Source: Roseovarius atlanticus (GTDB lineage: Bacteria; Pseudomonadota; Alphaproteobacteria; Rhodobacterales; Rhodobacteraceae). From it: a stretch of DNA of 64,000 nt. Of the stretch, positions 12,844-25,524 are shown in pieces. Location: contig NZ_LAXJ01000007.1 in assembly GCF_001441615.1 (NCBI RefSeq), forward strand, positions 62,001-126,000, read 5' to 3'. Numbering within the stretch: the first letter of the stretch is position 1; every line of letters starts with the position of its first letter. A program made the position numbers and the translations under genes. A model generated the notes under the pieces. The model searched no databases. It had not been told where the DNA came from and was given only the letters and a program-made list of their open reading frames with translations.

Positions 12844-13222
12844 GTGATGTCATTCCTCACGGGGGCAGCGGCACACCGCCCGTGGCCGCAGCGGCCCCGA
12901 ACAGGTGGTCATGTTCCGCATTACCGAGACCCGCGCGCCCTGACCAGCCCCACCGAGGTCAAATCGCACAAGATGCGGCGCTTAGACCACGCCGTGTGCA
13001 GCGAAACACCAGCGTTCTTTTTACCAGCGCGGAATCAAGGCCGCAGGCCGCCGCGCCATCGCCGGGCCGCACCCACGGCACGTCGATACGTCAACGTCAG
13101 CGCACCGCGCCAAAGTCTTTCGGGAACCCAGAGATAAAACACACCCCCTCAAACCTCGGATCGACGCACCGCGGCCCGTCGATCGCGCGGCTCGACACCT
13201 GTCACGCCTCTCCGGCATCCCC
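12844..13222. other. Intergenic region with no recognised gene
   Basis: No reading frame here looks like a known protein on either strand; the open frames present are short, arginine/proline-rich and unconvincing. The region should hold the hisC promoter. One hairpin is visible at 13159-13184 (GATCGACG / CGTCGATC, 10-base loop), about 40 bases past the homospermidine synthase stop on the minus strand. It lacks a proper T-run, so termination there is only a possibility. Confidence 0.5.
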
Positions 13223-15496: not shown

Positions 15497-15539
15497 CACG
15501 TCGCTTCGCCCAATCTGCAAGTTTCGCCACTGCGCCATC

Positions 15540-15562
15540 GTAGGGTGGGTGAAAACCCACGC
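15540..15562 (+). repeat. GTAGGGTGGGTGAAAACCCACGC hairpin repeat, copy 1
   Basis: The first of four near-identical 23-bp copies in the window (others at 16455, 16710 and 54113). The sequence folds as GTGGGT-GAAA-ACCCAC, a 6-bp stem with a GNRA-type tetraloop. This copy lies 12 bp past the stop of the minus-strand SRPBCC gene. Confidence 0.85.
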
Positions 15563-15573
15563 GCCCTCGCCCC

Positions 15574-16041
15574 CTACTTCAGGCTCTGCGCATACTCTTC
15601 CAACTGCGTCGCCACCGTGCCCCAGCCATCGAAGAACCCCATATCCTCGTGGGTCTTCTTCGCCTCAGGCGACCGATGCCGCGCCGTCGCGGTATAGATC
15701 GTGCCCCCCGCCCCGTCATCCTCCAGGTCCAGGATCGCCGTCATGAACGGGTCCGGCACCGGCGCCCAGCCCTCGGTATAGGTGTCGGTAAAGACCAGGC
15801 GGCTCATCTCGACCACCTCAAGGTAGACGCCCTTGTTGTCCATCAGCTGGCCGTCCACGTTCATCACCGTGTTGAACCGCCCGCCGACCCGCAGGTCGAT
15901 CTCGCAGCTCTCGATGCTGTACGGCTTGGGCACGAAGAAATGCTTGATATGCTCCGGCGTGGTCCAGCACTCCCAGATCAGCGCACGCGGCGCGTTCAGG
16001 GTGCGGGTAAAGCTCAGGTCGGTCTCGGGATTCAGGTTCAT
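15574..16041 (-). CDS. SRPBCC-domain (AHSA1-like) protein
   Basis: A 155-residue START/Bet v1-like fold protein. The N-terminal FTRTLNAPRALIWECWTTPE and FVPKPYSIESCEIDLRVGGRF segments are typical of the AHSA1 branch found beside ArsR regulators. TARHRSPEAKKTHEDMGFFDGWG forms the C-terminal helix. Such proteins bind hydrophobic ligands or act as stress-related cofactors; the ligand is unknown. The start overlaps the ArsR-type gene stop by 4 bp, so the two are co-translated and the regulator probably controls this gene. Confidence 0.87.
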   Translation of the reverse strand: MNLNPETDLSFTRTLNAPRALIWECWTTPEHIKHFFVPKPYSIESCEIDLRVGGRFNTVMNVDGQLMDNKGVYLEVVEMSRLVFTDTYTEGWAPVPDPFMTAILDLEDDGAGGTIYTATARHRSPEAKKTHEDMGFFDGWGTVATQLEEYAQSLK

Positions 16042-16379
16042 GTCTTCCGGTCCTTCATCAGGGTTGCGACGTATTCGTCGAGTTGGTCCAGCCGGCCCTC
16101 CCAGATCCGCCGCTGTTCGCTCAGCCAGTCGTCGACCGGGGCGAACGCGTCCGGGGCAAGGGCAAACGTTCGTGTCCGGCCCTGCTTGTCCGAGGTGACC
16201 AGCCCGGCCTCCTCCAGCTTTTTCAGGTGGCTCATGAACGACGGCAGCGCCATGTCATGCGACGCGGCCAGTTCGCTGACACTCGCCGGGCCGCGGGCCA
16301 GCCGCTGCAGGATCACCCGCCGCGTCGGATCGCCCAGCGCGGAAAAGCAAAGATCCAGTTTCGACTCATACTTAGCCAT
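16038..16379 (-). CDS. ArsR-family winged-helix transcriptional regulator
   Basis: A 113-residue regulator starting at ATG 16379, with AGGAA a few bases upstream; an upstream in-frame start gives only eight further residues with no clear ribosome-binding site. The winged helix-turn-helix spans about 12-85 (LGDPTRRVILQRLARGPASVSELAA, then the recognition helix SFMSHLKKLEEAGLV). No ArsR-type metal-binding cysteine pair is present, so it belongs to the metal-independent group often paired with SRPBCC proteins. A perfect inverted repeat covers its own translation start, suggesting autoregulation. Confidence 0.9.
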   Translation of the reverse strand: MAKYESKLDLCFSALGDPTRRVILQRLARGPASVSELAASHDMALPSFMSHLKKLEEAGLVTSDKQGRTRTFALAPDAFAPVDDWLSEQRRIWEGRLDQLDEYVATLMKDRKT

Positions 16380-16390
16380 ATTCCTAAGTA
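16369..16390. promoter_or_regulatory. Candidate operator of the ArsR/SRPBCC operon
   Basis: A perfect 7-bp inverted repeat, TACTTAG - 8 bases - CTAAGTA, spans the ATG and ribosome-binding site of the ArsR-type gene. Its size and spacing fit a homodimeric winged-helix repressor. Function is inferred from position and symmetry only. Confidence 0.55.
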
Positions 16391-16454
16391 ATGCAGCCAC
16401 CAAGACCGCGTCAATAACACTAAGCCAAAAAGCTAACTTTCAGCCAAAATTCAC

Positions 16455-16477
16455 GTAGGGTGGGTGAAAACCCACGC
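16455..16477 (+). repeat. GTAGGGTGGGTGAAAACCCACGC hairpin repeat, copy 2
   Basis: Identical to copy 1 over the 23-bp core. It lies upstream of the ArsR gene start and 16 bp before the 135-bp structured element, in the roughly 380-bp gene-free stretch between the ArsR/SRPBCC operon and the antiporter operon. Confidence 0.85.
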
Positions 16478-16492
16478 GTCTGATTCAAAGAA

Positions 16493-16627
16493 GCGCGATC
16501 GCCAGACCGCGGGATGGCGACCCAACGGGACTTCGGAGTACTTTATGCCAACCAAATCCGCCAAACACTGCATCGAGGCACTAACCTCACCCAATCGCCA
16601 GCCCGGGGGGCGGTCTGGCGATCGCGC
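16493..16627. repeat. 135-bp structured repeat element, copy A
   Basis: An 18-bp perfect inverted repeat (16493-16510 with 16610-16627) encloses a second stem, GGGATGGCGA (16511-16520) with TCGCCAGCCC (16595-16604). A roughly 74-base interior includes TATGCCAACCAAAT. A second copy of exactly the same length lies at 25256-25390. The inner stem is identical in both, while the outer stems differ at several positions that keep base pairing. A GC-rich hairpin follows directly. There is no coding potential. It may be a structured RNA or a small non-autonomous element. Confidence 0.8.
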
Positions 16628-16674
16628 GGCGGCCTGCGGCCTCGGCTCCGCACGTGCGCGCTTGAAAACCCCCC

Positions 16675-16695
16675 GTCCCGGACCCGATCCGGGAC
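16675..16695. repeat. GTCCCGGA-CCCGA-TCCGGGAC hairpin
   Basis: A perfect 8-bp inverted repeat with a 5-base loop lies in the gene-free stretch, between the structured element and hairpin repeat copy 3. On the minus strand it is 3' of the antiporter operon. It has no T-run on either side, so a terminator role is only possible. Confidence 0.6.
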
Positions 16696-16709
16696 CTCCC
16701 GCCGCTTTC

Positions 16710-16732
16710 GTAGGGTGGGTGAAAACCCACGC
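16710..16732 (+). repeat. GTAGGGTGGGTGAAAACCCACGC hairpin repeat, copy 3
   Basis: The same 23-bp core as copies 1 and 2. It lies 24 bp past the stop of the last antiporter gene (minus strand), the same 3'-end position as copies 1 and 4. Confidence 0.85.
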
Positions 16733-16756
16733 GTCGCCCACCTCGCAGGCCGCGCC

Positions 16757-17155
16757 CTACTCCTGCGCCTTCGCCGCGTCTGCCTCGGCCTCTTTCTCCA
16801 GGTCCGGGTCCGTCAGCGTCGACCACGTGTCGTCGCGCGGCGGGCTGGGCGGGGTCTCGCAGGCCCGCTTGTGGATATTCACCTTGGCGATGAAATGCGC
16901 CGAGATGGGTGCGGTGACGAACAGAAACGCCATGATCAGCGGCTCGTGATAGGACGTGTCGCCAATCAGGAACGAATGGATCATCGACGCCAGCAGGAAC
17001 ATCCCGATCCCCAGCGTACCCACCTTGGTGGGCGCGTGCAGGCGCGTCATCGGGTCGTTGAACTTCAACAGGCCGAAGACACCGACCAGCACGAATCCCG
17101 ATCCCACCAGCAGGCAGAACGCGACGGCAAGATTTCCGATCTCCACCCAGCTCAT
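16757..17155 (-). CDS. mnhG: Mrp-type Na+/H+ antiporter subunit G
   Basis: A 132-residue protein, last gene of the antiporter operon. Three transmembrane helices (about 8-30, 40-60 and 68-88) and the segment GVFGLLKFNDPMTRLHAPTK are diagnostic of MnhG/PhaG. The charged tail beyond residue 105 is longer than in many homologues. It starts at ATG 17155, overlapping the mnhF stop by 4 bp. It is required, with the other subunits, for an assembled cation/proton antiporter in the inner membrane. Confidence 0.93.
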   Translation of the reverse strand: MSWVEIGNLAVAFCLLVGSGFVLVGVFGLLKFNDPMTRLHAPTKVGTLGIGMFLLASMIHSFLIGDTSYHEPLIMAFLFVTAPISAHFIAKVNIHKRACETPPSPPRDDTWSTLTDPDLEKEAEADAAKAQE

Positions 17156-17439
17156 TCGATGATGTCCCCCCTCAAGATGAACCGCGCCAGCGCCACGGTG
17201 GACACGAAGCCCAGCATCGCGATCAGCAGCGTGACCTCGAAATAGACCTGCACGCCCTGGTAGATGCCCACCATCACCACCAGCCCCAGCGCATTGATCA
17301 CCATCGTGTCCAGCGCCAGGATCCGGTCGCCCGGGGTCGGCCCCATCACCAGCCGCACCATCGACAGGATCTGCCCCAGCGCCAGCACGACAAAGGAAAT
17401 GACAATGGCCAGTTCCATGATCTCGGCAGGGTTGCTCAT
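17152..17439 (-). CDS. mnhF: Mrp-type Na+/H+ antiporter subunit F
   Basis: A 95-residue protein with three transmembrane helices. The central segment VMGPTPGDRILALDTMVINALG is the hallmark of MnhF/PhaF. The start ATG at 17439 overlaps the mnhE stop by 4 bp and its stop overlaps mnhG by 4 bp, so translation is coupled on both sides. A longer frame extends upstream within mnhE but is not needed. Confidence 0.93.
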   Translation of the reverse strand: MSNPAEIMELAIVISFVVLALGQILSMVRLVMGPTPGDRILALDTMVINALGLVVMVGIYQGVQVYFEVTLLIAMLGFVSTVALARFILRGDIIE

Positions 17440-17936
17440 GCGAAAATCTCCTCCAGCCGGGCCTCGTAGCGGGTCTTGATCTCGTCGCGCACCGCGTCCG
17501 GGTCGTCGGTGTGCAGTACATGAACCAACAGGCTGTGCCCCTCGTCCGACAAATCCGACGACACTGTGCCGGGCGTCAGCGTGATCGTCCCCGCCAGGAT
17601 GGTGATCGCCTCGGGCTTCACCAGGTCCAGCGGCACCACGATCCACGCCGGTTTCAGCTTGGAATTGGGCACGGTCAGCACGATCCACGCCACCTGGATA
17701 TTGGCGATGATGATGTCATAGATCACGATCAGGCCATAGGTGAACATCCGGAACAGGTTGAAGCCCTTGGGCGTGTCCGGCCACCACACCGAGGTCATCC
17801 ACGGGATGATGATCCCCAGGATCAGCCCGAACACCGCCATCCCCGCAGAAAACCCGTTCTGCAACAGCACCCAGACCAGCGTCAGCAGCAGGGTCAGGAA
17901 CGGATGCGGAAACAGCCAGTAGAACGCGCGTGTCAT
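17436..17936 (-). CDS. mnhE: Mrp-type Na+/H+ antiporter subunit E
   Basis: A 166-residue protein with N-terminal transmembrane helices (about 12-30 and 33-50) and the MnhE-type sequence ANIQVAWIVL..PAWIVVPLDL. It continues into the conserved GTITLTPGTVSSDLSDEGHSLLVHVLH region (about 113-140) of the cytoplasmic part. It starts at ATG 17936, one base after the mnhD stop. The order D-E-F-G matches Mrp operons of alphaproteobacteria. Confidence 0.93.
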   Translation of the reverse strand: MTRAFYWLFPHPFLTLLLTLVWVLLQNGFSAGMAVFGLILGIIIPWMTSVWWPDTPKGFNLFRMFTYGLIVIYDIIIANIQVAWIVLTVPNSKLKPAWIVVPLDLVKPEAITILAGTITLTPGTVSSDLSDEGHSLLVHVLHTDDPDAVRDEIKTRYEARLEEIFA

Positions 17937-17937
17937 G

Positions 17938-19557
17938 TCAGTGCTCCCCGCCGTCTTGCTCTTCGCCATAGCCATCGCCGCTCTCGCCCTCGGCCGTGTC
18001 ATCGCCATACCCGCCCTTGGCCTTGTCCTCGGGCCGGCCCAGCTTGCCCGGCGTCTCCAGCACCGTCGACATATAGGTCTCGGGCGCGAACAGCTGCGCC
18101 GAGATGGCCCGCGTGTACCCATGCACCTGCCCGGCGAACACCGTATGCGCGATCAACAGCGCGATCAGCCCGCCCACGGCGGTATAGCTCAGCGCCGACG
18201 GTGCCGCCACCACCGGCGCCCCGTCGGGCCGCGCGATGCTGCGCGCCTTCCAGAACACATTGCTGCCCGCCCGGGCAAAGCCCACGACGCTGATCAGGCT
18301 GGACACCAGCACCACCGCCCAGATCCACGGCATCTGCGCACTGTCATAGGCGGCATCCAGCACCAACAGCTTGCCCAGGAAGCCCGACAGCGGCGGCAGG
18401 CCCGCCATGGCAATCGCGCCGACGAAGAACATCCCCGCCGTCAGCGCAGCACCCGACACCGGCGGCTGCGCCGTCAGGCTCAGGTTCGCGCGCCCCGCCC
18501 GCGCCAGATCGGTGATCAGGAACAGGATGGCCCCCGCCAGCGTCGAATGCACGATGTAATAGAGCGCCGCCGCGATCCCGGCCTCGGTGAAAAGCGCAAT
18601 CGCCACCATCACCATGCCCATCGACCCGATGATCGAGAAGGCCACCAGCCGGTCCAGCTTCTTCGCCGCCAAGACCCCGATCATCCCGATGGCCAATGAC
18701 ACCAACGCCGCCGGCATCAGCCAAACCACATGCAGCCCCGCCGTCGCCTCCAGATCGGGCGGAAAGATCATCGTGTAGACCCGGATGATGGCATAGGCTC
18801 CCACCTTCGTCATGATCGCAAAGAGCGCCGCCACCGGCGCCGGCGCCTCGGCATAGCTTGACGGCAGCCAGAAATGCAGCGGCACCAGCGCCGCCTTGAT
18901 GGCAAATACCAGCAGCAGCAGCACCGCCGCCACCCGGATGCCCACCGTCTCCTCCGCGCCGATCTGCGTCACCCGCGCGGCCAGGTCCGCCATGTTCAGC
19001 GTCCCCGCCTCGGCATAGATCGAGCCCAGCGCGAACAGAAACAGCGTCGAGCCGATGAGGTTGTAGAGCACATACTGCACCCCTGCCCGCAGCCGCGCGT
19101 TGCCGCCCGCATGGATCATCAGGCCATAGGAGGCAATCAGCAGAACCTCGAAGAACACGAACAGGTTGAAAAGGTCGCCCGTCAGGAACGCGCCCATGAT
19201 CCCCATCAGCTGGAACTGGAACAGCGCGTGGAAATGCCACCCCCGCTCGTCCCATCTCGACCCGATGGCGTATAGCAGCACAAAGAGCGCCAGCACGGAT
19301 GTCAGCAGCACCATCAGCGTCGACAGCCTGTCACCCACCAGCACGATGCCAAAGGGCGCGGCCCAGTCGCTCAACTGGTAGAGGATCACGTCCCCGTCCG
19401 ACACGCTCCACGCCAGGCTCACTGAGATGGCGATCAGCGCCACGACACCGGCAACGGAAAATGCCCGCTGAATCCCGAAATGAAACCGCGCGGCCAGCAC
19501 GATGAACGGCGCCAGCAGCGCCGGCAGCACGACGGGCGCGATAATCCAATGGGTCAT
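17938..19557 (-). CDS. mnhD: Mrp-type Na+/H+ antiporter subunit D
   Basis: A 539-residue integral membrane protein related to complex I subunits NuoM/NuoN. Fourteen or so hydrophobic helices are visible. The IMTKVGAYAIIRVYTM and KAALVPLHFWLPSSYAEAPAP segments carry the conserved lysines and histidine of the proton-channel family. The C-terminal 30 residues are acidic and glycine-rich. Its start overlaps mnhC by 4 bp. It is one of the two large proton/cation-conducting subunits of the complex. Confidence 0.94.
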   Translation of the reverse strand: MTHWIIAPVVLPALLAPFIVLAARFHFGIQRAFSVAGVVALIAISVSLAWSVSDGDVILYQLSDWAAPFGIVLVGDRLSTLMVLLTSVLALFVLLYAIGSRWDERGWHFHALFQFQLMGIMGAFLTGDLFNLFVFFEVLLIASYGLMIHAGGNARLRAGVQYVLYNLIGSTLFLFALGSIYAEAGTLNMADLAARVTQIGAEETVGIRVAAVLLLLVFAIKAALVPLHFWLPSSYAEAPAPVAALFAIMTKVGAYAIIRVYTMIFPPDLEATAGLHVVWLMPAALVSLAIGMIGVLAAKKLDRLVAFSIIGSMGMVMVAIALFTEAGIAAALYYIVHSTLAGAILFLITDLARAGRANLSLTAQPPVSGAALTAGMFFVGAIAMAGLPPLSGFLGKLLVLDAAYDSAQMPWIWAVVLVSSLISVVGFARAGSNVFWKARSIARPDGAPVVAAPSALSYTAVGGLIALLIAHTVFAGQVHGYTRAISAQLFAPETYMSTVLETPGKLGRPEDKAKGGYGDDTAEGESGDGYGEEQDGGEH

Positions 19558-19916
19558 TGCTGGCCCTCCGCCTGCGCGTCGTCTTCGTCTTCTTCCGGCT
19601 GGTCGTCCACGTGGTCGTCATCCGCACCCAGGAACGACCCCAGCGCGATCATCACCACCACCGCCGTCATCCCGAACGAGATCACGATGGCCGTCAGCAC
19701 CAGCGCCTGCGGCAGCGGGTCGGTATACGTTTCCACCCCGTCGACCAGAACCGGCGGCGCCCCCACGGTCAGCCGCCCCGACGCGAACAGGAACACGTTC
19801 ACCGCATAGGTCAGCAACGAAATCCCCAGGATCACCGGGAAGGTCCGCAGCCGCAGGACGAGGTACAACCCGCCCGCCGTCATGACGCCGATGGCCGATG
19901 CAACAAGAAACTCCAT
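19554..19916 (-). CDS. mnhC: Mrp-type Na+/H+ antiporter subunit C
   Basis: A 120-residue protein related to complex I subunit NuoK, with three transmembrane helices. It contains LGISLLTYAVNVFLFASG (about 35-52) and LPQALVLTAIVISFGMTAVVVMIAL (about 75-99), the MnhC/PhaC signatures. The C-terminus is acidic (DDDHVDDQPEEDEDD). It starts at ATG 19916, one base overlapping the stop of the large mnhA gene (TGATG). Confidence 0.94.
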   Translation of the reverse strand: MEFLVASAIGVMTAGGLYLVLRLRTFPVILGISLLTYAVNVFLFASGRLTVGAPPVLVDGVETYTDPLPQALVLTAIVISFGMTAVVVMIALGSFLGADDDHVDDQPEEDEDDAQAEGQQ

Positions 19917-22792
19917 CAGACAGGCCCCCCGCTTGCGCCCACCGTTTTCGGCGGATCATCCCGTGACGGGTCGATATCCATCGGATGCTCGGTATCCGGC
20001 GTATGCGCCCGCCGCGCCAGCCGCGAGAAGCTCTCCAGCGACAGCATCACCGCGCCCACGACCGCCAGGAACACGCCCAGATCGAACAGCGCCGCCGTCG
20101 CCAGCTCGAACTTCTCGAACGGCGGAATGCGGACATAGGTGAAATCCGAGGTCAGGAACGGCTTGCCCACAAACCATGATCCGATGCCGGTCAGCCCGGC
20201 AATCAGGACGCCCGCGCCGATCACCCCGTGATAGGGGTAACGCAGTCGCTGCGAGGTCCAGGCGAAACCGCTGGCCATGTACTGCATCACCACGCCGATC
20301 GACACGACCAGACCGGCGATGAACCCGCCGCCCGGCTCGTTGTGGCCGCGCAGGAAGATGTAGAAGCCGACCATCAGAACCACCGGCATGATCACCCGCG
20401 TCAGCACCACCATCATCATCGGATGCATGTCGCCCGCGCGCGGCTGGTCCGGCGTGCGGTTCAGCAGCCGCGCCCGCACCTTGCTGTTCAGCAGCGTCTC
20501 GGTCAGCGCATAGATCAAGAGCGCCGCGATCCCCAGCACGATGATCTCACCATAGGTGTCAAAGCCCCGGAAATCCACAAGGATCACGTTCACCACGTTG
20601 GTGCCGCCGCCCCCTTTGTAGGAATTGGCCAGGTGATACTCGGAAATCGGCGTCGCCACCGCATCGCGCAGAAGATAGTGATAGGACAGCGCAAAGGTCG
20701 CCAGGCCGCCGACAACGCCCACGCCCGCATCGCGCACCCGGCGCAACAGGCTGCTTTCCACCGGCGTCGTCTTGGGCAGGAAATTCAGCGCCAGCAGCAG
20801 CAGGATGATCGTCACCACCTCGACGGTGAACTGCGTCATCGCCAGGTCCGGCGCGCTGAAGAAGATGAAGCCGACCGACACCATCAACCCCACGATCCCG
20901 ATCAGGATCAGCGAGAAGAAGCGGTTGCGATGCAACAGAACCAGCGCCCCCGTTGCCGCCACCAGCATCAGCCACCCGGCGATGGTCACGGCACTCGGCG
21001 CCTGCATCTCCCGCGTGGCCTCATCGACCGTGCCCGTCACCCAGGCATAGTACCCCGCCACGATGATCGCCGCCGACCCCACGGCGGCATAGCGCGTGAA
21101 CGATCCGTTGTGGATCGGATGGATCAGCGCCCGCGCCCCCGCCGCCGCCGTCTCGACGATCCACTCGAAAATCACCTTGGCCTCGGGGCGCGGCGCCGCA
21201 TCCCACAGTTTCAGCAGCGGCTTGAACAGCAACAACACGATCAGCCCGCCCACCACGGCGGCAATCGACATGTAAAGCGCCGGCACCAGCCCGTGCCAGA
21301 TCTTGATGTATTTCACCTCCAGCGGCTCGACCCCGCCGATCACCGCCTTGGCGACCAGGAACACGAAATCCTGCACCAGGAACGGCGCGCAGCCGATCAC
21401 CACCACCAGAACGACCAGGATCGCGGGCGGCAGCCACATGCCCGCCGGCGGATCATGCGGCTTGGCCGGATAGTCGTCGCGCACCGGCCCAAGGAAGGTG
21501 TGCGAGATGAAGCGAAAGCAGTAGGCCGCCGAGAAAAGCGAGCCGATCACCGCCAGCGCCGGCACGAACCACCACGTATCGAACAGCACCGTGTGGTTGG
21601 CCTCCTCCAGCATCATCTCCTTAGATAGGAACCCGTTCAGGAACGGAATCCCCGCCATCGACAATGCGGCGAGCGTGGCGATGACAAACGTCACCGGCAT
21701 CAGCTTGCGCAACCCGCCAAGGCGGCGAATGTCCCGCGTATGCGCCTCGTGGTCTATGATCCCTGCGGACATGAAGAGCGCCGCCTTGAACGTCGCGTGG
21801 TTCAGGATGTGAAACACCGCCGCCATCGCGCCAAACGCCGTCCCCGTCCCCAAGAGCATCGTGATCAGTCCCAGGTGGCTGACCGTCGAGAACGCCAATA
21901 GCGCCTTCAGGTCATGCTTGAAGAGCGCAATGACCGCGCCCAGAACCATCGTGATCAGACCCGCGGTCGTGACGATCACGAACCATTCCGGCGTGCCCGA
22001 CAACACCGGCCACATCCGCGCCATCAGGAAGATCCCCGCCTTCACCATCGTGGCCGAGTGCAGGTAGGCGCTGACCGGCGTGGGGGCCGCCATCGCGTGC
22101 GGCAACCAGAAATGGAACGGGAACTGCGCCGACTTCGTGAAACACCCCAGCAGGATCAGGATCAGCGCCGGCACATACATCGGATCGGCCTGGATCATCT
22201 CGCGGTTCTGCAGGATCACGCTCAGGTCGTAGCTGCCCACGATCTGCCCCAGGATCAGCATCCCCCCGATCATCGCAAGGCCACCCATGCCGGTCACCGC
22301 CAGCGCCATCCGCGCGCCCTGCCGGCCTTCGGGCAAATGCTTCCAATACCCGATCAGCAGGAAGGACGATAGCGAAGTCAGTTCCCAGAAGACCAGCAAA
22401 AGCAATATGTTATCGCTCAGAACGATCCCCACCATCGCGCCCTGGAACAGCAGCAGATAGGTGAAAAACTCGCCCATATGGTCTTCGCGGCTCAGGTATT
22501 GCCGCCCATAGGCGATGATCAGCATCCCGATGCCCAGGATCAGGAAGGCAAAGAAGAATCCCAGCCCGTCCAGCATCAGCGTGAAGTTCAGCCCCAGCGC
22601 CGGCATCCAGTCGATCTGCGCCATCACCGTGCCCCCGGCCAGAACCGTCGGAAGATTGGTCAAAAGCCCGATGAACGCCGCCAGCGACACCGTGAACGTG
22701 ACCCCGGCACAGGACGACCGCCCCGCCGAATTCATCAAGCCCGGCAGAAGGGCACCGAAAAACGGAAGTGCTACGATAAAGAAGAGGGACAC
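19916..22792 (-). CDS. mnhA: Mrp-type Na+/H+ antiporter subunit A fused to subunit B
   Basis: A 958-residue protein starting at GTG 22792, with AAGGAG six bases upstream; an ATG 48 bases earlier lacks a comparable site. The NuoL-like MnhA part (about 1-770) has SSFLLIGYWKHLPEGRQGARMAL, KSAQFPFHFWLPHAMAAPTPVSAYLHSATMVKAG and a DUF4040-like portion. The last 150 residues (RVIMPVVLMVGFYIFLRGHNEPGGGFIAGLV) are MnhB, fused as in PhaA of rhizobia. It heads the operon A/B-C-D-E-F-G, which contributes to pH and sodium homeostasis in the inner membrane. Confidence 0.94.
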   Translation of the reverse strand: MSLFFIVALPFFGALLPGLMNSAGRSSCAGVTFTVSLAAFIGLLTNLPTVLAGGTVMAQIDWMPALGLNFTLMLDGLGFFFAFLILGIGMLIIAYGRQYLSREDHMGEFFTYLLLFQGAMVGIVLSDNILLLLVFWELTSLSSFLLIGYWKHLPEGRQGARMALAVTGMGGLAMIGGMLILGQIVGSYDLSVILQNREMIQADPMYVPALILILLGCFTKSAQFPFHFWLPHAMAAPTPVSAYLHSATMVKAGIFLMARMWPVLSGTPEWFVIVTTAGLITMVLGAVIALFKHDLKALLAFSTVSHLGLITMLLGTGTAFGAMAAVFHILNHATFKAALFMSAGIIDHEAHTRDIRRLGGLRKLMPVTFVIATLAALSMAGIPFLNGFLSKEMMLEEANHTVLFDTWWFVPALAVIGSLFSAAYCFRFISHTFLGPVRDDYPAKPHDPPAGMWLPPAILVVLVVVIGCAPFLVQDFVFLVAKAVIGGVEPLEVKYIKIWHGLVPALYMSIAAVVGGLIVLLLFKPLLKLWDAAPRPEAKVIFEWIVETAAAGARALIHPIHNGSFTRYAAVGSAAIIVAGYYAWVTGTVDEATREMQAPSAVTIAGWLMLVAATGALVLLHRNRFFSLILIGIVGLMVSVGFIFFSAPDLAMTQFTVEVVTIILLLLALNFLPKTTPVESSLLRRVRDAGVGVVGGLATFALSYHYLLRDAVATPISEYHLANSYKGGGGTNVVNVILVDFRGFDTYGEIIVLGIAALLIYALTETLLNSKVRARLLNRTPDQPRAGDMHPMMMVVLTRVIMPVVLMVGFYIFLRGHNEPGGGFIAGLVVSIGVVMQYMASGFAWTSQRLRYPYHGVIGAGVLIAGLTGIGSWFVGKPFLTSDFTYVRIPPFEKFELATAALFDLGVFLAVVGAVMLSLESFSRLARRAHTPDTEHPMDIDPSRDDPPKTVGASGGPV

Positions 22793-22972
22793 GCGAACTC
22801 CTTGGCGTAACAGTTTCGTAAATTCCGACCTAAACTGCATTCCAGCGACGAAAGCGCAAGGGAAAACGACCGAAATTGTCGGTTATAATCCTGCGTTATC
22901 GCGCCATAAAATCAAATGCATGTGTCACGGCGCGGCCCTTTGGGCGGCACCGTGACAATCTGTCCGGGCGGC

Positions 22973-24037
22973 TCAGGCCGCCTCGTGCATCAGGATCGCC
23001 GCCTCCGACGCGCTCAGGTTGCGCCGCGCGAACCCGCCATAGGTCTGCGGCTCGAATTCCAACGTCGGATTGTACTCCAGCAACCGCTTGCGATCCTCCG
23101 CGTCCAGCGCCTGAAGCGACGCGGAGGCCGGATGAAAGCTCTCGGTCTCCACCCCGTTGGCCCACAACACCTGGTGGCGCGGCAACAGCAGGTGCACATA
23201 GGTCACCTCCCGCACGGCCAGGTCGATGGCGATGTTGCGCCCGTTCACAAGGTCCTTGGCCGACACCAGCACTTCGGGCGTGTTGTAAAGCGCCTGCGCG
23301 ATCTCGCCCTCCACCAGCATCCGGTGCTCGGGGCTGACCAGCAGCTCCTCGTCCGGACGCTCGACGCCCAGCGCGCCGGTGCGAATGCGGATCGGGCGCA
23401 GATGCGGCATCGCAAAGAGCCGCGCGCCCGTCATCCGCCGGCTGCCGATCCACTGGATCTCTTCCGCGCCGTTGTCCTTGGTCTGCACGTAATCGCCCTC
23501 GCGCAGCTCCTCGACCAGCCGCGGCCCGTCCGGCGTCTCGATCCGCGTGCCGGGGGTGAAACAGATCACCCCGCCGCTTTCCACGTCGGTCGTCTGGCTG
23601 CGATGCGCGCCCAACGACTGGTGCACGATCCACATCTCGGTGTTCCTGGGCGGGATCTCGTCAAGGAACATCAGCAGAGGCGGCGCCCCATGCCCCACCT
23701 CGATTACGGTGATGGTGTAACTCTTGACCCCGTTGGTGACCACGAAACCGCTGTCCATCAACGGCTCATGCACCTCCACCTCGTCCAGCTTCGTTGTCCC
23801 CGTGCGTGCCGCCGTCACCAGCCGCCGCACCAGTTTTGCCGCGCATTTGCGGCTCATGGCGTCCCGTTCGGTCCGCTCCAGGCGCAGTACTTCATTGGGC
23901 CCGTCCACCCGCACCAGATCCCCGCGCCAGGACCATGCGGCCCCCACGCTCAGAGACTGGACAGGAGCGGCCTCCAAACCGTCCACTTCCGTCTGCGACC
24001 AGGAGATGACGAACGCGCCCCGAAAGGTCGTTCCCAT
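22973..24037 (-). CDS. Hint (hedgehog/intein) domain protein
   Basis: A 354-residue protein with an N-terminal region (about 1-150) that resembles nothing I recognise. It is followed by a Hint_2 domain beginning GGVICFTPGTRIETPDGPRL, with the candidate nucleophile cysteine in CFTPGT near residue 159. LREGDYVQTKDNGAEEIQWIG and a LLVSPEHRMLV motif follow. The domain is widespread in roseobacters, often in large secreted proteins, and may catalyse self-cleavage or ester formation rather than splicing. No second extein-like domain follows; only about 90 residues remain. No signal peptide is visible. It stands alone between the antiporter and LpxR-like genes. Confidence 0.83.
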   Translation of the reverse strand: MGTTFRGAFVISWSQTEVDGLEAAPVQSLSVGAAWSWRGDLVRVDGPNEVLRLERTERDAMSRKCAAKLVRRLVTAARTGTTKLDEVEVHEPLMDSGFVVTNGVKSYTITVIEVGHGAPPLLMFLDEIPPRNTEMWIVHQSLGAHRSQTTDVESGGVICFTPGTRIETPDGPRLVEELREGDYVQTKDNGAEEIQWIGSRRMTGARLFAMPHLRPIRIRTGALGVERPDEELLVSPEHRMLVEGEIAQALYNTPEVLVSAKDLVNGRNIAIDLAVREVTYVHLLLPRHQVLWANGVETESFHPASASLQALDAEDRKRLLEYNPTLEFEPQTYGGFARRNLSASEAAILMHEAA

Positions 24038-24135
24038 TGCCTGTATGCCTGCCTTTTTTAGTCTTTTTTTAACTTTTTGTGGTGGCAGCCTAGCAGGCGC
24101 GAATCACTCTGGGAAGCGTTTTCAAGGGGTTACGA

Positions 24136-25062
24136 TCAGAAATTAAGGCGCAGTCGCACCGATCCCACAAGCTGACCTTCCTTTTGCGCCTCGAATTCCT
24201 TGTCCAGCCAGGTCAGCCCGTAAAAGATCGTGCCGCCCCGCTTGCCCTGCCAGTTCACGCCCGTGCGCACCCGTGTCCGCGCATCGGTCAGTTGGATACC
24301 CCGGTCCCGGTTCAACAACTCGCTGCTGTCCACATAGGCCACGTCGGCCCCGAAGACAAAGCTCGCCCCGGGCGCCTCATTGCCCTGCACGGCCACGTAT
24401 CGTTGCCCCGTCACCGGGTCGCGCACCAGCAGGCCGTCACGCCCGCGCTGGCCAATCGTCAGGTCAAAGCCCACCCGCGCCAGCGTCTCGAACCCCCAGC
24501 GCCCTTCGACAAAGGGCCGGATCGTCGCGTTGCCGCCCAGCGCGAAATCCCGCCCGGCCTCCATCACCAGTTCGGGGTTCACGTCGTTGCTCACCTGGTT
24601 GCGGCGCACCTGGCCAGAAATATCCCGTCCGCCCAGATAGTCGTGCAGGAACCTCTGGAAATCGTCCAGGCCGGTCTGCGGCCCGGTCACCACCACGTCC
24701 ACGCCCACTGCATAATCCATCGCCCCGCGCGCGAAATGCGTGTGCAGCCCAAGCGACAGCGCGCCGCCGAAGGGCCGGTCGCCCAGCGCGGGCCGGCTCA
24801 GGTTCTGCGGCGACACGATCCGCCCGTTAAAGCGCAGTTCCAGCACCTCGCCGAATCCTTGCGGCAAGCGTCCGGTCCAGCCCCGCCCCCAGATCCGGCT
24901 GGTCGAGACCGATCCGGTCTGCCAGCGATCATGCAGGTCGCCGAAAATGTCGTTGGTCGCCAGCCAGCCATAGCCGATGCGCTCGCGCCCCTGGGCGTCG
25001 GCGGCCTGGCCGGTCGCCAGCATCGTCAAAGCGGTGAAAAACGCTGCAAGGAGCCGCGTCAT
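24136..25062 (-). CDS. Lipid A deacylase LpxR-like outer-membrane protein (DUF2219)
   Basis: A 308-residue protein starting at ATG 25062, giving the signal peptide MTRLLAAFFTALTMLATGQAADA. A longer frame upstream adds a charged stretch that would bury the signal. The mature part has the LpxR/DUF2219 signature: ATNDIFGDLHDRWQTGS, with N37 and D38 in the position of the family's active-site Asn-Asp pair. It shows alternating beta strands and ends in a C-terminal phenylalanine (RLRLNF), as expected for a 12-strand barrel. LpxR removes the 3'-acyloxyacyl chain of lipid A; the activity here is inferred from family. Confidence 0.82.
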   Translation of the reverse strand: MTRLLAAFFTALTMLATGQAADAQGRERIGYGWLATNDIFGDLHDRWQTGSVSTSRIWGRGWTGRLPQGFGEVLELRFNGRIVSPQNLSRPALGDRPFGGALSLGLHTHFARGAMDYAVGVDVVVTGPQTGLDDFQRFLHDYLGGRDISGQVRRNQVSNDVNPELVMEAGRDFALGGNATIRPFVEGRWGFETLARVGFDLTIGQRGRDGLLVRDPVTGQRYVAVQGNEAPGASFVFGADVAYVDSSELLNRDRGIQLTDARTRVRTGVNWQGKRGGTIFYGLTWLDKEFEAQKEGQLVGSVRLRLNF

Positions 25063-25524
25063 GTCTATCGTCCCGTTCCCGTCGCCCCCCGGCCCTGAAG
25101 GGGTATACCGAAACCGGCGCGCGGGGCTATCGTTCATGTCCCGAATTTCCCCACCGTGGGCTTCGCGCAACATTGCGGCGGATAACACGCGCCTACCGTG
25201 AACGGCGACATGGCGAAAGACTGCAGAGCGGGACTTTTCTGCCATGCACGACAGAGGCTATCGTCAGCCCCTGGGATGGCGATCCGATGGCAGTTCTGAA
25301 GCACTTAATGCCTGCCAAATACATCCCCAGAATGATCGTTGTACCCAGCCTTGCCAAATCGCCAGCCCAAGGGAGGGGCTGACGATGGCCGGGCCGCTTC
25401 GCGGCTGTTAACCGGCTGAGGGCTCGACACCGATTTCTCAAAGGACTCGAAGCGGACAATTGCAAAGGTTTCGGCTACGCTATGAAGTCACACGACTTCC
25501 TTGCCTCCGCAAAGGGCCCCACGC
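25063..25524. other. Gene-free interval around structured element copy B
   Basis: About 460 bp between the LpxR-like gene (minus) and the racemase-like gene (plus). No frame resembles a protein. It holds the 135-bp structured element at 25256-25390, directly followed by a small GCCGC-TTCG-CGGC hairpin with a UUCG tetraloop. The flanks must contain the divergent promoters, but no near-consensus pair is obvious. Confidence 0.6.
25256..25390. repeat. 135-bp structured repeat element, copy B
   Basis: A 17-bp outer stem (25256-25272 with 25374-25390, one G-T pair) encloses GGGATGGCGA (25273-25282) paired with TCGCCAGCCC (25359-25368). The inner stem is the same ten bases on each side as in copy A. 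The interior shares ACTTxATGCCxxCCAAAT. Compared with copy A, at least four outer-stem base pairs are changed on both sides (for example C-G to T-A and A-T to C-G), which is covariation preserving the helix. Confidence 0.8.

What the first reader, a model, noticed from the sequence alone, without database searches (positions are those of the whole stretch)
16493..25390. Two 135-bp elements with an identical inner stem and a covarying outer stem
Copies at 16493-16627 and 25256-25390 are the same length, 135 bp. Both have GGGATGGCGA paired with TCGCCAGCCC and share the interior ACTTxATGCCxxCCAAAT. The outer stems are perfectly or nearly perfectly paired in each copy yet differ in sequence: at least four base pairs have changed on both arms. 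Two-sided compensatory change is the mark of selection on a helix (RNA, or single-stranded DNA), not of a shared sequence alone. Each is followed directly by a small GC hairpin (a UUCG loop at 25390). They are in gene-free DNA and encode nothing. They could be a non-coding RNA family or a small non-autonomous mobile element. I do not match them to any named RNA motif I know.
Basis: partly seen in the sequence, partly recalled or inferred. Interest (0 to 1): 0.78.

Follow-up and report, generated by a model that had tools for sequence, protein, structure and literature searches.

The report
Family of mobile hairpin repeats
The two hairpins belong to a large family of short non-coding DNA repeats, about 50 in this genome and present in many genera of one bacterial family, that appear to have copied themselves between genes while keeping an elaborate folded shape; the enzyme that moves them is unknown.

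Summary
Copies A (16493-16627) and B (25256-25390) share an inner stem and have different but paired outer stems. A third copy, C (13027-13192, minus), was missed; its inner stem differs too, yet pairs. A covariance model finds 50 full-length and 5 short copies in the genome, and matches in 29 of 30 genomes of the genus and 86 of 198 of the family (one per genus; own genome included in both). In a 240-genome class sample only 3 match, all in this family. No Rfam family matches. In 40 copies, 28 from other genera, the long hairpin is 93% paired with changes on both sides at 21 of 31 pairs; all controls are far lower. The end sequence X stands at both ends and pairs with one internal X'; all three covary. 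Near-identical copies lie at unrelated sites in one genome, and occupancy differs between relatives, so the family spreads. Copies avoid genes and divergent promoters and show no orientation bias. Best reading: a non-autonomous, fold-dependent mobile repeat, REPIN- or CIR-like in plan. No Y1/RAYT transposase was found in the genome and no parent element in the stretches read. A host RNA function is not excluded but is less likely to explain the family.

The parts
16489..16654 (+). copy A, whole element (type 1), from the 5' end to the 3' repeat CCGCACG
   Evidence: 153.7 bits; 5' boundary by comparison
16493..16510 (+). A: left arm of outer helix P1, pairs with 16610-16627
16511..16520 (+). 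A: left arm of inner helix P2 (GGGATGGCGA), pairs with 16595-16604, one A.G mismatch
16521..16594 (+). A: interior with the conserved ACTTTATG and CCAAATC; no covarying helix found in it
16605..16609 (+). A: 5-nt bulge on the right arm
16624..16654 (+). A: 3' hairpin P3 (GCGCGG, GGCC-TGC-GGCC, linker, CCGCAC, one mismatch); its 5' strand is also the end of the right arm of P1
25256..25416 (+). copy B, whole element (type 2), P1 to 3' strand CCGGC
   Evidence: 135.7 bits
25256..25272 (+). B: left arm of P1, pairs with 25374-25390
25273..25282 (+). B: left arm of P2, pairs with 25359-25368
25388..25416 (+). B: 3' hairpin P3 (GCCGG, GCCGC-TTC-GCGGC, TGTTAA, CCGGC)
13027..13192 (-). copy C, third member of the family in the window; outer stem (GGGCCGC/GCGGCCC) and inner stem (CGTCGA/TCGACG) differ from A and B
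   Evidence: (79.9 bits); orthologues in G052 and G034

Best explanation
A, B and C are copies of one old family of non-coding, non-autonomous mobile repeats of the bacterial family Rhodobacteraceae. The unit is about 160-165 nt. It has two inverted imperfect palindromes (left about 24 nt, right about 30 nt) around a 75-nt interior. They pair either with each other (one long hairpin, P1+P2) or each with itself (two local hairpins). A third hairpin follows, whose strand X' can pair with the 3' end X or with the 5' end X. Most likely mechanism: the unit is moved in trans by an enzyme that recognises the folded single strand (single-stranded DNA at replication or, less likely, RNA), as proposed for REPINs and known for IS200/IS605. 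X' would align the two ends or the target X. Shown: the fold is maintained by compensatory change; copies spread to unrelated sites; sites are gained or lost; X, X' and X covary. Inferred: movement in trans, single-strand recognition, the guide role of X'. Not known: the enzyme.
For: Fold: 40 copies, 31 pairs, 93.4% of 1223 cells paired (shuffled 79.6, sd 0.6), changes on both sides at 21 pairs, covariation 0.340 against 0.094; sliding the register by one column drops pairing to 33-36%. P3: 91.9% paired, covariation 0.296 against 0.076. Local hairpins: 89.0% paired, 0.230 against 0.101. Three-way X: among 91 of 143 copies in which P3 was located, 42 have a non-consensus X'; the 5' end fits its own X' better in 28, the consensus better in 7, equal in 7; 0 of 2000 shuffles reach the summed fit. 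Mutual information links columns 8-140-164 and 11-137-167. Spread: in G000, pairs at sites without a flank match over 250 nt share 93% (L350, L354) and 92% (L052, L056) of the interior; 11 of 19 orthologous pairs listed share 77-91%, the other 8 no more than 74%. Site A: G034 has the element between two CCGCGCG, G052 has one CCGCACG and no element. One extra copy in G052 beside a shared one. Deletion derivatives and a left-only fragment. No orientation bias: of 60 copies placed (61 submitted), 14 '++' and 15 '--', 25 convergent, 6 divergent, none in a predicted gene. 0-97 model matches per genome of the genus.
Against: PF01797 (Y1/RAYT) is absent from G000 and found in only 7 of 30 genomes of the genus. 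No longer version with a gene between the ends was seen, but only 14 stretches from three of the five genomes were read. The empty site in G052 may be a deletion between the 7-nt repeats: its A variant is shared with copy A's 3' end, and G011 keeps what looks like a remnant. One orthologous pair is 97% identical in the interior, more than any paralogous pair (L352 and L359). Arms diverge less than interiors at orthologous sites (left arms 27 of 464, interiors 207 of 1106 positions, 15 pairs), as a host function or homogenisation between copies would also give. In type 2 copies such as B the 5' end does not match X' at its outermost bases. No transcript or transposition data exist here.
Confidence: 0.62

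Rival explanations
1. A host structured RNA or 3'-UTR element: the hairpin is transcribed with the upstream gene and acts in termination, mRNA stability or as a small RNA; copies are kept because they help the host.
For: Arms conserved at orthologous sites. 25 of 60 copies lie between convergent genes against 20 of 138 background gaps, and 4 of 4 annotated plasmid copies do (all four are full-length matches to R1). Of the 39 copies whose upstream gene reads in the element's direction, 21 start within 30 nt of its predicted stop (counted). A mismatch or wobble step is kept in P2 (26 of 40 copies without a standard pair there). G.T cells outnumber A.C cells on the sense strand, 60 to 31 in A3 and 28 to 7 in the first 60 rows of A4.
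Against: Orientation to codirectional neighbours is even (14 against 15). 0 to 97 matches in genomes of the genus. Near-identical copies sit beside unrelated genes. Of the 88 G.T cells 39 come from two columns of the alignment, and the search model itself favours G.T.
Confidence: 0.2
2. A retro-element: the RNA folds, is reverse transcribed by a host or intron-borne enzyme in trans, and its cDNA is inserted, like a bacterial SINE.
For: Fold-level covariation across genera and the sense-strand G.T excess fit an RNA intermediate.
Against: No reverse transcriptase search was run. No A-rich tail or variable target duplication was noticed in the copies read; the end repeat X belongs to the element and covaries with X'.
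Confidence: 0.08
3. A folded recombination site like an integron attC, cut by a tyrosine recombinase: outer and inner stems are inverted copies of one box (ATCGCCA/TGGCGAT), with bulge, mismatch and variable terminal part.
For: Linked columns 18-29-114-130; outer and inner helices carry the same box in opposite orientation in most rows (local pairing); 135 nt lies inside the 57-142 nt of attC (PMC2727003, passages).
Against: No attC R-box triplet at the ends (consensus recalled); single dispersed copies, not cassette arrays; part of the four-way signal may be subfamily signature. No recombinase search was run.
Confidence: 0.06
4. No selection on the fold: arms are corrected to perfect palindromes by template switching or gene conversion between copies.
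For: Orthologous sites have swapped modules, interiors and in one case type, so exchange between copies, or replacement, does happen.
Against: Correction would remove the P2 mismatch and the bulge, yet both recur; stems differ between 28 other genera while pairing stays at 93%.
Confidence: 0.04

Closest known systems
REPIN / RAYT system (PMC3116915, passages read)
   Same: Two inverted palindromes around a spacer, extragenic, non-autonomous, two possible folds (long hairpin or 'clover'), compensatory changes on both sides of the hairpin, 5' tail complementary to the 3' end.
   Different: No RAYT or other Y1 transposase found in the genome; different ends; a 75-nt interior with conserved letters; an extra 3' hairpin with the shared strand X'.
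CIR, Caulobacter CcrM-associated intergenic repeats (PMC2229807, passages read; primary paper not held)
   Same: Alphaproteobacteria, intergenic, two arms joined by a linker, a GANTC site in one hairpin (75 of 131 copies here).
   Different: CIR are described as having two arms and no 5'-3' stem; here 5'-3' pairing is the best supported helix. GANTC is not specially conserved. No significant match of R1 in two Caulobacter genomes.
ERIC, NEMIS/Correia, RUP and other bacterial MITEs (PMC10969869 and PMC2229807, passages read)
   Same: 100-200 bp, non-coding here, dispersed between genes, long stem-loops, copy number varying between relatives.
   Different: No parental insertion sequence found; three-way covarying ends; covariation across the whole bacterial family.
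IS200/IS605 ends (recalled)
   Same: Terminal hairpins, and an internal guide that pairs with the cleavage site next to a hairpin.
   Different: Here one guide can serve both ends, the ends also pair with each other, and no Y1 transposase was found in the genome.
Integron attC sites (PMC2727003, passages read)
   Same: Folded single strand with two inverted boxes, bulge and variable terminal part.
   Different: No R-box triplets at the ends, no cassettes, dispersed singly.

Membership tests
REPIN | two inverted palindromes that form hairpins | tested here: met
   local hairpins 89.0% of 480 cells paired, covariation 0.230 against 0.101
REPIN | RAYT (Y1 transposase) in the genome | tested here: not met
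   PF01797 none in G000; 7 of 30 genomes of the genus
REPIN | short conserved tetranucleotide (GTAG-like, recalled) at the foot of the palindrome | tested here: not met
   5' end is RAGCCGCGC in the profile of 143 copies
CIR | two arms and a linker, intergenic | tested here: met
CIR | GANTC conserved in a terminal loop | tested here: inconclusive
   75 of 131 copies (linkers located with a score that favours TTGATT and GTTAA); among single-base variants of TTGATT my count is 10 that lose and 9 that keep the site
CIR | sequence homology to CIR1-CIR4 | not testable with these tools
   primary paper not held; R1 gave best E 0.489 in one Caulobacter genome and nothing in the other
MITE | terminal inverted repeats, small, non-coding | tested here: met
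MITE | target-site duplication | tested here: inconclusive
   CCGCGCG at both ends in G034 and one CCGCACG at the empty site in G052, but X is an element-specific sequence
MITE | derived from a known insertion sequence | tested here: inconclusive
   no longer version in the 14 stretches read; insertion-sequence libraries not searched
IS200/IS605-derived element | Y1 transposase available in trans | tested here: not met
   none in G000
integron attC | R-box AAC/GTT at the ends (recalled consensus) | tested here: not met
integron attC | integron integrase nearby | not tested
any Rfam family | match at gathering score or near it | tested here: not met
   window, gathering: only a tRNA; six loci at E up to 5: no match overlaps an element

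The most novel reading that the evidence does not exclude
A self-guided miniature element: the internal strand X' base-pairs in turn with its own 3' end X and with a target X, so the element aims its own insertion by nucleic-acid pairing, and changes of X' and both X together create new specificities. The four-box hairpin would switch between a long 'stored' fold and a two-hairpin 'active' fold. This would be a guided mobile element with no gene of its own and a non-Y1 enzyme.
Probability: 0.15. Interest if true: 0.85.

Novelty: new variant of a known kind. Interest (0 to 1): 0.55.

Why it matters
It is a structured repeat family spread through one large bacterial family that Rfam did not match and that my literature searches did not find named. 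The fold is backed by strong covariation, of the sort usually taken as the mark of a structured RNA, yet the copies behave like a mobile element. It offers a natural series of co-changed end-guide-end sequences (42 departing from the commonest), so base-pair-guided targeting of small mobile DNA can be tested directly. It also raises the question of what moves REPIN-like repeats where no RAYT is found, and it is a caution for RNA-motif discovery, since covariation alone does not prove a host RNA.

Tried and rejected
IS200/IS605 or RAYT mobilisation in the present genome: rejected for lack of PF01797. An autonomous parent with a gene between the ends: the left-end pattern was run in five genomes; 14 stretches from three of them (G000, G026, G052) were fetched and read and gave full copies, short copies, a left-only fragment and a partial copy in tandem with a full one, but no parent; the remaining left ends of G026, G015 and G033 were not checked one by one. 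Additional helix in the interior: none by mutual information on 133 of 143 copies (10 outside 154-166 nt dropped). Strand test by G.T against A.C: inconclusive. GANTC/CcrM role: site present in 75 of 131 copies but not preferentially conserved. sRNA papers on Ruegeria pomeroyi (PMC4809877, passages) and Paracoccus denitrificans (PMC5107571, passages): the passages seen mention no such repeat family; of Weinberg 2010 (PMC2864571, passages) the passages seen name only the SAM/SAH riboswitch for Rhodobacterales. That the family is not named in print rests (open-licence library only; Chen and Shapiro 2003 on CIR not held).

Limits of counts: the inner-stem patterns select copies with that inner stem, so A2 and R1 are biased to them. 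Searches used stricter filters and lose weak matches. Samples include the own genome. Per-genome match numbers include opposite-strand shadows. One search uses a home-made gene predictor and includes orthologous copies; 60 of 61 submitted copies could be placed. A5 holds 40 copies: 28 of the 29 other-genus loci L234-L262 (L251 dropped, too near a contig end), 3 from the window, 9 from the genus; it leaves out most of the copies in hand. In one search, 52 of 143 copies were left out because P3 was not located, and two of the 42 deviating copies (L075, L079) had the guide placed in an inserted module. In one search duplicates were removed from A3 (91 of 98 rows) and only the first 60 of 69 rows of A4 were used.
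Full report
CHECK OF THE OBSERVATION. Copies A (16493-16627) and B (25256-25390) are present as described. Folded alone, both strands of both copies beat their shuffles (z -4.1 to -4.8). A third copy, C, lies at 13027-13192 on the minus strand. Its outer and inner stems both differ in sequence from A and B but pair.

HOW MANY AND WHERE. A loose pattern of the shared inner stem finds 26 copies in the 4.58-Mb genome; the strict one occurs in 24 of 100 genomes, the own genome included, all 24 with the same genus label, which 60 of the 100 bear. A covariance model (R1, 54 copies) finds 50 distinct full-length copies in the genome with E of 1.5e-11 or better and 5 short ones of 58-64 nt (my count, opposite-strand shadows removed). 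R1 matches 29 of 30 genomes of the genus, own included, with 0 to 97 matches each, shadows included, and 86 of 198 genomes drawn one per genus from the family, own included. In a class-wide sample of 240 genomes 3 match: the own genome and two others, all with the same family label. Named carriers: Lutimaribacter pacificus (81 matches at E up to 1), Marinovum algicola (7), Pararhodobacter aggregans (4), a Roseovarius (3, one of them significant); none in one Pseudooceanicola, nothing significant in two Caulobacter genomes. Among plasmids, 51 records of Salipiger, Sulfitobacter and Pseudosulfitobacter match, 50 of them over the right arm only; the four examined hold full-length elements by R1. 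No phage record matched. That the family is Rhodobacteraceae is inferred from these names.

ANATOMY. Alignment A5 of 40 copies (28 from other genera, 3 from the window, 9 from the genus) was made from sequence alone. P1+P2, 31 pairs: 93.4% of cells paired, 21 pairs with changes on both sides, covariation 0.340 (shuffled 0.094); one-column slides fall to 33-36% paired. P3, the 3' hairpin: 91.9% paired, covariation 0.296 against 0.076. P2 keeps a non-standard step (26 of 40 copies unpaired at columns 30/121) and the right arm a bulge of about five bases. The left palindrome and the right palindrome can also fold on their own: 89.0% paired, 0.230 against 0.101, because outer and inner stems carry much the same box in opposite orientation. 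Mutual information over 133 copies puts P1 and P2 pairs in register at the top of the list and shows the links 18-29-114-130, 8-140-164 and 11-137-167. So the end sequence X (CCGCGCG in most type 1 copies here) stands at both ends and pairs with one internal strand X'. In 42 copies where X' departs from consensus the 5' end follows it (28 better with its own X', 7 better with the consensus, 7 equal; 0 of 2000 shuffles). In that script the 3' match is circular because X' was located by it; one search is free of that. Type 2 copies such as B lack the match at the outermost 5' bases. The interior has conserved letters (ACTTTAT, CCAAATC) but no covarying helix.

MODULES AND DERIVATIVES. Some copies carry extra hairpins at fixed places in the right arm, and orthologous copies may differ by them (L069 and L064, L078 and L062, L081 and L075). 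Short copies can be explained by deletion between the TGGCGA boxes.

CONTEXT. Of 60 copies placed among predicted genes (of 61 submitted; orthologues included) 25 lie between convergent genes, 29 between codirectional ones (14 in one orientation, 15 in the other) and 6 between divergent ones; none lies inside a predicted gene. Background gaps of at least 100 nt: 71 codirectional, 47 divergent, 20 convergent. The four annotated plasmid copies all lie between convergent genes. Of the two given copies, B is divergent and A codirectional.

MOBILITY. Within G000, copies at sites without a flank match share up to 93% of the interior (L350 and L354) and 92% (L052 and L056). Of 19 orthologous pairs, 11 are listed at 77-91% and the rest fell below the listing limit of 74%; one further orthologous pair is 97% identical (L352 and L359). 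At site A, G034 carries the element between two CCGCGCG and G052 has one CCGCACG and no element. Against this as proof of insertion: the A in CCGCACG is shared with copy A's 3' end, so G052 may have lost the element between the short repeats, and G011 keeps what looks like a remnant. Site B holds type 2 in G000 and G052, type 1 in G034, none in G011; site C is occupied in three of four. In a second stretch one copy of G000 is a short form in G052, one lies in replaced DNA, and G052 has one additional copy. Arms diverge less than interiors at orthologous sites (left arms 27 of 464, interiors 207 of 1106 positions, 15 pairs); right arms could not be compared cleanly where modules differ (53 of 545 with modules included).

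MECHANISM. Shown: maintained fold, spread to unrelated sites, gain or loss of sites, covarying ends. Inferred: non-autonomous movement in trans by recognition of the folded single strand, with X' aligning X. The nearest plan is the REPIN, for which two folds, compensatory changes and a 5' tail complementary to the 3' end are described (PMC3116915, passages). But no Y1 transposase was found in G000 and only 7 of 30 genomes of the genus have one, so it is not filed as a REPIN. CIR elements of Caulobacter share arms, linker and a GANTC hairpin (PMC2229807, passages), but homology could not be tested. RNA or DNA action is undecided: G.T exceeds A.C on the sense strand (60 to 31 in A3, 28 to 7 in A4), with 39 of the 88 G.T cells in two columns.

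VERDICT. A real, structurally constrained, family-wide mobile repeat with an unusual end-guide-end covariation; new as a family to my searches, known in general kind.

Noticed in passing
window 15540-15560, 16455-16475, 16710-16730: A second dispersed repeat, GTAGGGTGGGTGAAAACCCAC, palindromic, three times around copy A; also beside copies elsewhere in the genome.
   Followed up: no
window 16677-16695: Hairpin CCCGGACCCGATCCGGGAC, resembling hairpins seen next to several other copies.
   Followed up: no
window 25227-25238 and 25441-25460: Type 2 copies, B included, are often flanked by pieces of a further repeat (AGCGGGACTTT upstream, GGCTC.AAGCGGACA downstream), as if type 2 preferred to sit in it.
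   Followed up: partly
L056, L062, L387, L392 right arms: Module Y (TCGCACC...GGCGTGACG) in the bulge and module X (CCTTTCGG-hairpin-CCTTTCGGTCAGCGG) in the right arm, present or absent at orthologous sites; possibly further nested palindromes.
   Followed up: partly
5' junctions of 143 copies: Stop trinucleotides are frequent at the 5' junction (52 of 143 copies in an 8-nt window, 18-23 in five control windows), partly because the element begins RAG.
   Followed up: partly
upstream positions -19 to -17 of 143 copies: T is rare about 20 nt before the 5' end (6-13%, neighbouring positions mostly 15-30%); unexplained.
   Followed up: no
window 15500-16478: The DNA left of copy A (ArsR-like and SRPBCC-like genes by my reading) is shared with G011 but replaced by other DNA in G034 and G052, so the breakpoint lies at the element.
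   Followed up: no
G000:C67:214844-215002 and 215107-215269: A type 1 and a type 2 copy about 105 nt apart in the same orientation.
   Followed up: no
L018 1840-1906 and L061 3768-3868: Two copies from different species lie near an L2-Alphaproteobacteria ribosomal protein leader.
   Followed up: no
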